A stretch of DNA of 44,195 bases from Promethearchaeota archaeon (GTDB lineage: Archaea; Asgardarchaeota; Lokiarchaeia; Sigyniarchaeales; SOKP01). Every line of letters starts with the position of its first letter. Positions within the stretch are counted from its first letter, which is position 1. The notes under the pieces are model-generated. The model saw only the letters and a list, made by a program, of their open reading frames with translations, was not told where the DNA came from and ran no database searches. Of the stretch, positions 7,299-10,712 are shown piece after piece. The stretch covers positions 693,188-737,382 of the forward strand of contig CP070805.1 of assembly GCA_020343655.1 (NCBI GenBank), read 5' to 3'. The translations under genes and the position numbers were made by a program.

Positions 7299-7500
7299 TG
7301 CAGGAGGTGGGATTCGAACCCACGAATTTAGGCCGATGAGAAGTTTCAATCGAAGACCTATGTCACTAGAGCCTCAGTAACGCCATAAACTCATAATAGA
7401 GCACTATTCTAGCGCCGTAGACCTAATTTCCATTCCAGTCTAATAGTTGTAATTTATTAGAATTCTAGAAGATTCATTCTAGAATCTTGGCTACCCCTGC
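7299..7500 (-). tRNA. tRNA-Leu (anticodon GAG) with two, possibly three, introns
   Basis: Read on the minus strand, the 5' acceptor GCAGGGG (7500-7494) pairs with CTCCTGC (7306-7300), and the T-arm GTGGG-TTCGAAT-CCCAC is perfect. The D-stem GCC...GGC is split: after GCCAAG about 60 nt (roughly 7485-7424, containing two hairpins) intervene before GGTCTACGGC. The anticodon stem CTAGA/TCTAG is split by about 30 nt (7407-7378), followed by the 7-nt loop CTGAGGC, which gives anticodon GAG. The variable arm pairs TAGGTC with GGCCTA around a 20-nt loop; removing 16 nt (7350-7335) would leave a UUCG tetraloop, so a third intron is possible. The long variable arm fits tRNA-Leu. CCA is not encoded. Exact splice points need bulge-helix-bulge modelling. 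Discriminator A. Confidence 0.85.
7371..7423. repeat. 53-bp direct repeat, copy within tRNA-Leu(GAG)
   Basis: This segment of the tRNA-Leu gene covers the 3' part of the D-arm, the 5' anticodon stem, the intron and the anticodon loop. It recurs at 7902-7954 with 50 of 53 positions identical, counted by eye. The two copies are 531 bp apart start to start and in direct orientation. Confidence 0.9.
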
Positions 7501-7680
7501 TTTTTTTTTATTATTACTCTCTTTTAATGATTCCTCTTGAACGACTAATTGATAAATAGAAATCTTTAAGATTTTAATATTTTACTATCATTTAAATCCT
7601 TTTCTCTTCAAATTTTATCAGTTTAAATATATAATTATAGAATGTCACGTAAGCTTATTAAGAAATGAGAATGCTTCTAA

Positions 7681-7911
7681 ATGTCAGAAGAGAAAGAATT
7701 CTTTTATAGATATCTAGATAAATTATTTAGAAATTATCCAAATATAGACCATATTAGATCTTTCCTTTATGATCCATTTGGAGATTATCCTCCATCTACT
7801 TATGGTCTTGAATTGATGGCAAATCGTAATATTGATATTAATTTTTTTACTAAAGTACAATCAAAATCGGATGGTATTAAATTTGGCAATGCTTGGCTTT
7901 GGCCTCAGTAA
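7681..7911 (+). CDS. Short orphan ORF ending inside a tRNA-Leu fragment
   Basis: The 76-codon ORF begins with ATG about 40 bp after a TATA-like stretch (7622-7634). I do not recognise the protein. It looks like the N-terminal part of a soluble globular protein rich in aromatic residues (EFFYRYLDKLF, FLYDPFGDYPPSTYGLELM). Its last codons and TAA stop lie in the tRNA-Leu-like fragment that starts at 7902, so the present C terminus (WPQ) is most likely a product of recombination, not of selection. It is either a truncated gene or a chance ORF left in the space between the two tRNA-Leu copies. Not assigned. Confidence 0.4.
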   Translation: MSEEKEFFYRYLDKLFRNYPNIDHIRSFLYDPFGDYPPSTYGLELMANRNIDINFFTKVQSKSDGIKFGNAWLWPQ

Positions 7912-7966
7912 CGCCATTAACTCACAATAGAGCAGTATTCTAGCGCCGTAGACCAGGCTTGGCAAC
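7902..7966 (-). pseudogene. Partial tRNA-Leu copy (D-arm, 5' anticodon stem, intron, anticodon loop)
   Basis: Positions 7902-7954 repeat 7371-7423 of the tRNA-Leu(GAG) gene in the same orientation with three differences in 53 bp, at the places matching 7387, 7394 and 7404. All three fall in the anticodon-loop intron, while the exon bases are identical. Beyond 7954 this copy has an uninterrupted leucine D-arm (TTGCCAAGCCTGGTCTACGGC on the minus strand), without the D-loop insertion of the complete gene. There is no matching 3' anticodon stem, variable arm, T-arm or acceptor, so it cannot be a working tRNA by itself. It looks like an attachment-site relic or a broken duplicate. Confidence 0.7.
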
Positions 7967-8271
7967 TTTGTTTAGCTATACTCTCTTGATGTATTGATTT
8001 AAGATAATGTATTTAATTTTTAATATTTTATTCCTGTACTAACTTTAATTATTAAATTAATATAATTAATATATCGAAAAGAGAAAACTAGATTTCTAAG
8101 TAACATCAATCAATGAAGGTTATCTTTTGTTTTTATAGATCAAACTTTATTTCTAATTTTTTTGAAGATTATCGTTTTCTATAAATTTTTATAACAAAGG
8201 TATTATATTAAATATTATATTTTAGATATTTTATAATGCATTTGGAAACAAGCTAAATAATTTTCAAATTC
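7967..8271. other. AT-rich intergenic leader before the Roadblock-GTPase gene
   Basis: About 305 bp lie between the tRNA-Leu fragment and the GTPase start. The stretch is strongly AT-rich with several TATA-like runs near 8200-8235, a fitting distance for a promoter of the downstream gene. I find no credible ORF, tRNA or strong hairpin here. Confidence 0.5.
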
Positions 8272-9285
8272 ATGTCAGTCGATCGAAAAAAATTGGAAGC
8301 ATTGTTAGATTGGTATAAGCAAGAAATTGGAGAAAATTTAATCGCTGCCCTTATTGTAAATAGAGAAGGTCTAGTAATGACTGCCTTAAAAGGAATTTCA
8401 GAATCCAATGTAGAAGAAGATGTAATTGGAGGAGTGAGTGCATTAGTAGAGCCCGTTTTAACTAGGATCACAAAAGAATTTAGTTCTGGCTCTTTTGGGA
8501 CAGGGACTTTCGATACAGAAGATCAAAGATTCATTTTCTGTGAAGCTGGCCCTGAAGCGATTTTTGTGACAGTACTGAATTCGATTGCAATGGTGGATCC
8601 TGTTTTTCCATATGCTTACTTAGCTGCTGAGAAAATTGCCAGAATATTTGATGGACGAACAGTAAGTCCTGTAATTCCAAAATTATTTACTGATAATAAA
8701 ACTCAATATATTGAAAGGAAAGTAGAAAAACTGCAGAAAATTAAAATACAATCAAGAGAATATGCTTTCAAACTAATCCTCGGTGGCGAAGGTGGAGTAG
8801 GAAAAACAAGTATGGTACATCGATTTGTTGAGGACTCATTTCTAACTGATTATAAATCTACTATTGGAACGTCCATAATGAAAAAGGAGTGTGAATTTCA
8901 AGGATTAGAATCAAAGGTACGCTTTGTTATCTGGGATTTAGCAGGACAAGCCCAATTTAAGCGTGTAAGGCAAACTTACCTGGCAAATGCTGAAGCGGGT
9001 ATTTTAGTTTATGATGTCACACGCGAAGAAACTTTTGATAGTTTAGAAAATTGGTTTAAAGAAATTAAGAGTGTTTCACCAGCAATCTCACTAATTCTTG
9101 TTGGAAATAAAATAGATCTAAAAGAAGATCGTGTTGTATCGACTGAACAAGGAGAAGAACTCGCACAAAAATTAAATCTTTCATATATTGAAACATCTGC
9201 CAAGACAGGAGAAAATATAAATGATGCCTTTAAAATGCTCGCTTTACAAATAATCAAACGTTTTGTTTTTACAGAAGAAGTATAA
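8272..9285 (+). CDS. Roadblock/LC7 domain fused to a Ras-like small GTPase
   Basis: The 337-residue protein has two parts. Residues 1 to about 135 look like a Roadblock/LC7 (longin-related) domain, a fold that acts as a dimerisation and GTPase-regulating platform (ALIVNREGLVMTALKG, then a central helix and strands). After a charged helical linker (145-162) comes a Ras-superfamily GTPase domain with all G motifs: P-loop GGEGGVGKTS at 171-180, the switch I threonine in STIGT near 197, WDLAGQAQF at 221-229, NKID at 279-282 and TSAK at 308-311. The switch II glutamine is present, so GTP hydrolysis should be possible. There is no C-terminal cysteine for prenylation. Asgard genomes are rich in Roadblock proteins and small GTPases; the fusion puts both in one chain. 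The stop is 4 bp from the convergent tRNA-Thr. Confidence 0.92.
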   Translation: MSVDRKKLEALLDWYKQEIGENLIAALIVNREGLVMTALKGISESNVEEDVIGGVSALVEPVLTRITKEFSSGSFGTGTFDTEDQRFIFCEAGPEAIFVTVLNSIAMVDPVFPYAYLAAEKIARIFDGRTVSPVIPKLFTDNKTQYIERKVEKLQKIKIQSREYAFKLILGGEGGVGKTSMVHRFVEDSFLTDYKSTIGTSIMKKECEFQGLESKVRFVIWDLAGQAQFKRVRQTYLANAEAGILVYDVTREETFDSLENWFKEIKSVSPAISLILVGNKIDLKEDRVVSTEQGEELAQKLNLSYIETSAKTGENINDAFKMLALQIIKRFVFTEEV

Positions 9286-9289
9286 TTTG

Positions 9290-9390
9290 AGCCTCTGGGG
9301 GGAATTGAACCCCCGATCTACAGATTACGAATCTTTAGCATCTCCTTCAAAATGATTTTAAATGTTGCTATACCACTAAGCCACAGAGGC
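9290..9390 (-). tRNA. tRNA-Thr (anticodon CGT) with an intron in the anticodon stem
   Basis: On the minus strand the acceptor GCCTCTG (9390-9384) pairs perfectly with CAGAGGC (9297-9291), with discriminator T at 9290. The D-arm is GCT-TAGTGGTAT-AGC, the T-arm GGGGG-TTCAATT-CCCCC, and the variable loop AGATC. The anticodon stem reads ACA [29-nt insert, 9362-9334] GA, then the loop TTCGTAA, then TC TGT. Removing the insert restores a 5-bp stem and a canonical loop with CGT (9329-9327). The intron therefore sits between positions 29 and 30, not at the usual 37/38. No CCA is encoded. The gene is convergent with the Roadblock-GTPase gene. Confidence 0.92.
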
Positions 9391-10608: not shown

Positions 10609-10712
10609 GGGCTATTGGCGCAGGCAGGTAGCGCAGCAGGCTTTTAACCTGACATTTAAGGGAAGATCTCCCTTAAAAAGAAAGGTCAGGGGTTCAATTC
10701 CCCTATAGCCCG
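10609..10712 (+). tRNA. tRNA-Lys (anticodon TTT) with an intron after the anticodon stem
   Basis: The acceptor GGGCTAT (10609-10615) pairs with ATAGCCC (10705-10711), discriminator G. The D-arm is GCGC...GCGC (618-621/631-634 of the 10 kb block), the anticodon loop CTTTTAA is at 10641-10647 with TTT at 10643-10645, and the T-arm AGGGG-TTCAATT-CCCCT is at 10688-10704. Between the 3' anticodon stem (CCTG, ending 10651) and the variable loop AGGTC (10683-10687) lie about 31 extra bases holding a 9-bp hairpin (10655-10663 with 10669-10677). This is an intron near position 43/44, again non-canonical. The outermost anticodon-stem pair would be G-A in my trimming, so the exact ends are uncertain. 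A T-run follows at 10714 and may end transcription. Confidence 0.9.

What the first reader, a model, noticed from the sequence alone, without database searches (positions are those of the whole stretch)
7299..7500. tRNA-Leu(GAG) broken by a D-loop intron, an anticodon-region intron and perhaps a variable-arm intron
Acceptor, D, anticodon and T stems can all be closed only if about 60 nt in the D-loop and 30 nt beside the anticodon loop are removed. A further 16 nt in the variable arm, if removed, would leave a C(UUCG)G tetraloop. Two introns are well supported and the third is a guess. Multiple non-canonical introns are known mainly from Thermoproteales; a D-loop intron with two internal hairpins in an Asgard tRNA would be notable. 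My trimmed length (~97 nt) is still long, so the variable-arm model may need adjusting.
Basis: partly seen in the sequence, partly recalled or inferred. Interest (0 to 1): 0.72.

Follow-up and report, generated by a model that had tools for sequence, protein, structure and literature searches.

The report
Three-intron tRNA, one intron imported
A leucine tRNA gene in a Lokiarchaeon is interrupted by three introns that must be cut out to make a working tRNA, and one of them seems to have arrived inside foreign DNA that inserted into the gene and left a dead piece of the old gene 0.4 kb away, which bears directly on how tRNA introns are gained.

Summary
Confirmed with corrections. Window 7500→7299 (minus strand) is tRNA-Leu(GAG) of a Lokiarchaeon. 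The 202-nt gene carries three non-canonical introns: 59 nt at 15/16 (D-loop), 30 nt at 30/31, and 28 nt (not 16) at about 47/48. The mature tRNA is 85 nt, not ~97. Orthologues in related genomes lack one or another intron and give the same exon sequence. The 30/31 intron has a strict, covarying bulge-helix-bulge (BHB). The genome encodes both EndA subunit types.

The insert is flanked by a 53-bp repeat (50/53 identical). It supplies a new 5' part of the tRNA with the D-loop intron, plus a broken HerA-like ATPase gene. The old 5' part, without the D-loop intron but beside its own upstream region, survives as a relic at 7902-7966. Syntenic loci in six same-genus relatives lack the insert. The same insert occurs in two other, non-sister lineages and is more alike between two of them (92%) than neighbouring genes (76-84%). 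This closely repeats the tRNA-Thr case behind the Sugahara et al. 2012 model of intron gain by element integration. No integrase remains, and splicing is unproven without RNA data.

The parts
7299..7500 (-). tRNA-Leu(GAG) gene, 202 nt with three introns; exons 7500-7486, 7426-7409, 7378-7353, 7324-7299 (85 nt mature)
   Evidence: orthologues in same-genus genomes
7427..7485 (-). D-loop intron (15/16), 59 nt: GCCAAG^A...UGGAAA^UUAGGUC; closing helix UUCUAG/CUGGAA, central helix CCA/UGG, 5' bulge AG^A
   Evidence: same site in G013, G011, G059 and, with another body, G029; L063 has the uninterrupted D-arm GCAGGGGTAGCCAAGTTAGGCCTACGGC
7379..7408 (-). anticodon-arm intron (30/31), 30 nt: CUAG^A...UU^ACUGAGG; strict hBHBh' (CGG/CUG - CGCU/GGCG - bulges AGA and UUA)
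   Evidence: 13 sequences: 96% of cells paired, 5 pairs changed on both sides, 0/500 shuffles; absent in G005, G016, G025 and others
7325..7352 (-). variable-arm/T-stem intron (~47/48, cut ambiguous by a few nt), 28 nt: GUCUU^CGAUUG...AAAUU^CGUGGG; relaxed BHB (UAGGUC/GGCCUA, bulge UUC)
   Evidence: 8 sequences, 100% of cells paired, one pair with two-sided changes; absent in G006, G016, G012, G005 and others
7371..7423 (.). left copy of 53-bp direct repeat (inside the functional tRNA; tRNA nt ~38 back to the D-loop, with the 30/31 intron)
   Evidence: 50/53 identical to 7902-7954; BLAST E 4e-17
7424..7901 (.). 478-bp insertion: new 5' part of the tRNA with the D-loop intron (7424-7500), new upstream region, broken gene
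   Evidence: absent from the syntenic locus of G015 and five other genomes; present in part in G013 and G011
7681..7911 (+). 76-aa ORF, N-terminal fragment of a ~650-aa HerA/DUF87-like ATPase, truncated at the right repeat
   Evidence: 55-62% identity to 650-690 aa ORFs over residues 17-73; PF01935 3.9e-8 for a full-length homologue
7902..7966 (-). relic of the old tRNA-Leu: repeat copy (7902-7954) plus D-arm AGGCTTGGCAAC; has the 30/31 intron, lacks the D-loop intron, the acceptor 5' strand and everything after nt 38
7967..8271 (-). upstream region of the old tRNA-Leu, homologous to that of intact relatives (about 23 bp next to the tRNA deleted)
   Evidence: alignment to L056
2301..5822 (+). 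DNA polymerase D large subunit, syntenic neighbour used for the locus tree
8272..9285 (+). small-GTPase-domain gene, syntenic neighbour on the other side

Best explanation
A functional tRNA-Leu(GAG) gene whose transcript loses three introns by the archaeal EndA/BHB pathway. The 30/31 and ~47/48 introns are shared with many relatives. The D-loop intron was imported: a foreign circular DNA integrated into the tRNA gene by recombination inside it, left the host's 3' part in place, and replaced the 5' part with its own intron-bearing copy and new upstream DNA. It displaced the old 5' part and its upstream region to the far side. The element then decayed to 478 bp. Shown from sequence: the exons, intron ends (the last within a few nt), BHB of the 30/31 intron, insertion, repeat, relic, empty sites, non-sister distribution. 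Inferred: splicing itself, a circular element, and the recombinase.
For: Only the fully spliced 85-mer and a close variant are called tRNA-Leu(gag) by ARAGORN. Orthologues form an intron presence/absence series with the same exons. The predicted spliced D-arm matches, but for one base, the natural uninterrupted D-arm of L063. The 30/31 BHB covaries. EndA: one subunit with the conserved Tyr/His/Lys pattern (198 aa) and one lacking the His (209 aa). Insert: joining the flanks across the insertion (7299-7370 + 7902-8271) aligns with intact loci better than the uncut window in all six relatives tested (scores 254-395 vs 167-281). D-loop intron carriers G000, G013 and G011 are not sisters in the PolD tree. 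The non-tRNA insert is 92.3% identical to G013 over 248 bp, against 80.0% (PolD), 84.0% (GTPase), 76.5% (M28); Fisher 2.6e-7, 5e-4, 2e-9. The insert carries a broken HerA-like gene of patchy distribution.
Against: No integrase or recombinase gene remains in the insert. No source element was found in IMG/VR (the hits are chance). The right edge of the repeat may be a deletion end rather than an att-core boundary. The insert in G011 is not significantly more alike than its GTPase gene (86% vs 84%). The D-loop BHB has only three good central pairs, and its closing helix shows no double compensation. The relaxed 47/48 BHB lacks an outer helix. No RNA data exist here. All genomes are metagenome-derived.
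Confidence: 0.74

Rival explanations
1. The three introns are real and spliced, but the insert and relic arose by ordinary tandem duplication of the tRNA gene in this lineage followed by decay of one copy, without a mobile element.
For: Tandem tRNA-Leu copies with duplicated spacers do occur in the family (tRNA-Leu(UAG) x3 in G077). The two repeat copies are closer to each other (50/53) than to any other genome (38-46 matches of 42-53 aligned bases).
Against: The insert contains foreign DNA (broken HerA-like gene, new upstream region) absent from intact loci. The new 5' part differs from the old one in the D-loop intron and in GGGGTAGCC vs GGAGTTGCC. The same insert is in G013 at 92% identity while neighbouring genes are at 76-84%.
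Confidence: 0.1
2. Homologous recombination with incoming chromosomal DNA of another Lokiarchaeon carrying the D-loop-intron allele, not integration of a circular element.
For: The three carriers share the allele with upstream DNA. tRNA exons offer homology. No integrase remains.
Against: Allelic replacement would remove the old 5' part; here both remain, flanking an insert, as expected of single-crossover integration of a circle.
Confidence: 0.13
3. The insert was gained once in the common ancestor of the ten-genome clade and precisely lost in the other lineages.
For: Site-specific excision could restore the old gene exactly.
Against: Needs several independent precise losses on the PolD tree, and the G000-G013 insert identity is too high for vertical descent.
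Confidence: 0.12
4. The gene at 7299-7500 is itself a pseudogene that is not spliced.
For: It is missed by ARAGORN and Rfam, and a broken copy lies nearby.
Against: All exon stems are intact. It is the only tRNA-Leu(GAG) match in the genome besides the relic. Introns covary to keep splice motifs. Both EndA subunit types are present.
Confidence: 0.04

Closest known systems
Caldiarchaeum subterraneum tRNA-Thr(GGU) locus, types A/B/C (Sugahara et al. 2012, PMC3293823)
   Same: A tRNA gene with an extra intron in its 5' part, a 5' fragment of the older tRNA form upstream, an insertion between them absent from another allele, and an unchanged 3' part and flank.
   Different: There: 1.87-kb insert with a predicted recombinase, strain-level alleles in one population, intron at 24/25. 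Here: 478-bp decayed insert without recombinase, intron at 15/16, 53-bp repeat, and the same insert in non-sister species of an Asgard genus.
Multi-intron tRNA genes of Asgard Atabeyarchaeia and Freyarchaeia (PMC11291895)
   Same: Asgard; non-canonical positions; several introns per tRNA gene.
   Different: Other Asgard classes; no mobile-element link in the passages read.
Non-canonical tRNA introns of Thermoproteales (cited in PMC11291895 and PMC3293823; otherwise own knowledge)
   Same: D-, anticodon-, variable- and T-arm introns, removed by an EndA that tolerates relaxed BHB motifs.
   Different: Thermophilic Thermoproteota; proposed intron movement there is between tRNA genes (own knowledge, not checked here), not with an inserted element.
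tRNA-targeted integrative elements of archaea (review PMC8371274)
   Same: Integration inside a tRNA gene with a repeated core and replacement of one tRNA part by the element's copy; intron-containing tRNAs are also used.
   Different: No integrase left, and here the 5' part is replaced with the intron-bearing copy.

Membership tests
Archaeal BHB (EndA-spliced) tRNA introns | Removal leaves a canonical cloverleaf tRNA | tested here: met
   85 nt, tRNA-Leu(gag) by ARAGORN
Archaeal BHB (EndA-spliced) tRNA introns | Bulge-helix-bulge at the exon junctions: 30/31 intron | tested here: met
   3-nt bulges, 4-bp central helix, covariation
Archaeal BHB (EndA-spliced) tRNA introns | Bulge-helix-bulge at the exon junctions: 15/16 and 47/48 introns | tested here: inconclusive
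   Relaxed motifs: 47/48 conserved with little variation; 15/16 has a 3-bp central helix, four near-identical sequences
Archaeal BHB (EndA-spliced) tRNA introns | Splicing endonuclease encoded in the genome | tested here: met
   Two EndA genes, 198 and 209 aa
Archaeal BHB (EndA-spliced) tRNA introns | Spliced RNA and circular introns observed | not testable with these tools
   No RNA data
Element-mediated tRNA intron acquisition (Sugahara model) | Fragment of the old tRNA with its own upstream region | tested here: met
   7902-7966 plus homologous upstream DNA
Element-mediated tRNA intron acquisition (Sugahara model) | Uninterrupted allele at the same locus elsewhere | tested here: met
   Six intact loci
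Element-mediated tRNA intron acquisition (Sugahara model) | Recombinase or other mobile genes in the insert | tested here: not met
   Only a broken HerA-like gene; no recombinase
Tyrosine-integrase element in a tRNA gene | Direct repeats of tRNA sequence at both ends | tested here: met
   53-bp repeat, 50/53
Tyrosine-integrase element in a tRNA gene | Integrase gene | tested here: not met
   None in 7424-7901; not filed as a member for this reason
Split (trans-spliced) tRNA | 5' half gene with intact acceptor strand and a leader that pairs with a 3' half | tested here: not met
   The relic lacks nt 1-7, and the 3' half is already in the functional gene

The most novel reading that the evidence does not exclude
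One family of integrative elements has repeatedly delivered the same intron-bearing 5' part of tRNA-Leu(GAG) to at least three separate Lokiarchaeal lineages, so that tRNA introns in Asgard archaea spread horizontally as cargo of tRNA-targeting elements.
Probability: 0.42. Interest if true: 0.8.

Novelty: new member of a known kind. Interest (0 to 1): 0.6.

Why it matters
How archaeal tRNA genes gain introns is an old open question. The model that mobile elements carry them in their attachment sites rested, as far as found here, on one tRNA-Thr locus in one Caldiarchaeum population. This would be a second, independent case, in Asgard archaea, with intact alleles in relatives and signs that the same intron-bearing half moved between lineages. 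It also shows that standard tRNA finders miss such genes, so tRNA sets of Asgard genomes look falsely incomplete.

Tried and rejected
Split-tRNA 5' half: rejected (no acceptor strand). Triple repeat in G077 as an intact element: rejected, ordinary tandem tRNA-Leu(UAG) copies. G029 as a second insert with relic: no relic near its tRNA. Viral contigs carrying the tRNA half: only chance hits. HerA-like gene as clear proof of a conjugative element: not supported; homologues lie near GIY-YIG-like, methyltransferase-like and other accessory genes (judged from sequence, not scanned) and match HerA models of defence systems.

Full report
Observation. The finding lies on the minus strand: 7500 (5' end, GCAGGGG) to 7299 (CTCCTGCA), 202 nt. 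ARAGORN sees no tRNA in the window, and Rfam's tRNA model finds two other tRNAs in it but not this one, even with permissive settings on 401 bases.

Organism. The PolD large subunit 1.5 kb away matches Lokiarchaeota records at about 70-82% identity. The genome (G000) is one 2.27-Mb contig.

Orthologues. A nucleotide search of 58 related genomes and extraction of the genes give a natural series. G006 lacks the D-loop and variable-arm introns. G005 and G025 lack all three but have a T-loop intron. G016 lacks the anticodon-arm intron. The exons agree throughout. Subtracting the inserts gives 85 nt = 202 - 59 - 30 - 28, which ARAGORN calls tRNA-Leu(gag). The third intron is 28 nt, because relatives read GTCTTCGTGGG where the window reads GTCTTCGATTG...AAATTCGTGGG. 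The TTCG repeat leaves the cut ambiguous by a few bases. Within the genus this one tRNA gene has introns at about six positions (D-loop x3, 30/31, ~47/48, T-loop).

Splice motifs. The 30/31 intron forms outer CGG/CUG, central CGCU/GGCG, 3-nt bulges AG^A and UU^A and an inner helix. Over 13 sequences 96% of cells pair, 5 pairs change on both sides, and no shuffle reaches the observed covariation. Sliding the partners destroys it. The 47/48 intron forms UAGGUC/GGCCUA with bulge UUC and an inner helix, 100% paired in 8 sequences but with little variation. The D-loop intron ends GCCAAG^A...UGGAAA^U, with central CCA/UGG and closing helix UUCUAG/CU(A,G)GAA. G029, in another genus, has an unrelated intron body with the same ends. 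Locus L063 has the uninterrupted D-arm GCAGGGGTAGCCAAGTTAGGCCTACGGC, one base away from the predicted spliced form. The minimum-energy fold of the precursor is stable (z -3.6) and does show two hairpins in the D-loop insert. The genome has two EndA genes: a subunit with the conserved Tyr, His and Lys, and one lacking the His. This suits the heterotetrameric type that tolerates relaxed motifs (the type assignment is my inference).

A second partial copy. BLAST of the gene against its own genome returned a 53-bp match (94%) at window 7902-7954. It is the D-loop-to-anticodon part of a tRNA-Leu with the 30/31 intron but without the D-loop intron. It continues into a D-arm (GTTGCCAAGCCTGG) and then into DNA homologous to the region upstream of tRNA-Leu in relatives. 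Thus the old 5' part and its upstream region are still there, broken, and the functional gene has a new 5' part. Joining the flanks across 7371-7901 restores the order seen in six intact loci. The insert, 7424-7901, holds the new 5' part with the D-loop intron, new upstream DNA and a 76-aa ORF. That ORF is a fragment of a ~650-aa HerA/DUF87-like ATPase, a gene of patchy occurrence (16 of 65 family genomes) that matches HerA models of defence systems.

History. In a PolD tree the D-loop-intron carriers are not sisters: G000 groups with G002/G004/G018 (95/95), G011 with Hel13 and G012 (100/99), and G013 branches outside the other nine rows of their clade. The non-tRNA insert is 92.3% identical between G000 and G013 over 248 bp, although their PolD, GTPase and M28 genes are 80.0, 84.0 and 76.5% identical. 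The simplest account is transfer between lineages. For G011 the excess is not significant against the GTPase gene. G059 (another genus in the family, short contig) has the same intron with different upstream DNA.

Mechanism. A circular element holding an intron-bearing tRNA-Leu 5' part recombines with the host gene. The host keeps its 3' part and gains the element's 5' part, and the displaced 5' part decays. The shared core may be longer than 53 bp, because the HerA fragment ends abruptly at the right repeat, which points to a later deletion. Shown: insertion, repeat, relic, intact alleles, distribution. Inferred: circular element and recombinase. Missing: an integrase and the source element.

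Known precedents. Sugahara et al. 2012 (PMC3293823) found in Caldiarchaeum a tRNA-Thr with an extra intron and, 1.8 kb upstream, a 5' fragment of the simpler tRNA form, and proposed intron gain through element integration. A review cites an intron-bearing attP as intron vector (PMC8371274). Asgard genomes with introns in 92-95% of tRNA genes are published (PMC11291895). The present case is therefore a new member of a known kind, valuable as an independent second example.

Verdict.

Noticed in passing
window 10609-10712 (+): tRNA-Lys(UUU) with an intron of about 30 nt in the variable loop rather than the anticodon loop.
   Followed up: no
window 9290-9390 (-): A second tRNA with an intron in the anticodon arm.
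   Followed up: no
G000 whole genome; L001-L021, L120: Only 21 tRNAs pass the Rfam cut-off in a 2.27-Mb single-contig genome and none is a tRNA-Leu; tRNA-Asp(GUC) in L120 appears to have a D-loop intron. The tRNA set looks incomplete because of introns.
   Followed up: partly
L026, L031, L034, L035, L037, L040, L042, L047: T-loop introns in tRNA-Leu(GAG), splitting the TTC-RA motif from the T-stem, in eight related genomes.
   Followed up: no
L217:5361-10235: Three tandem tRNA-Leu(UAG) genes with duplicated spacer ORFs of 222-227 aa in G077.
   Followed up: partly
L075:4353-5765: About 1.4-kb insertion in the PolD large-subunit gene of G013 between RRNC and CDGDEDG, intein-like.
   Followed up: no
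L224, L228, L229: The HerA-like ATPase gene sits next to a 600-700 aa gene that looks like a GIY-YIG protein (YGYIYR...YIG), conserved in three genomes of three different genera beside a chaperonin gene.
   Followed up: no
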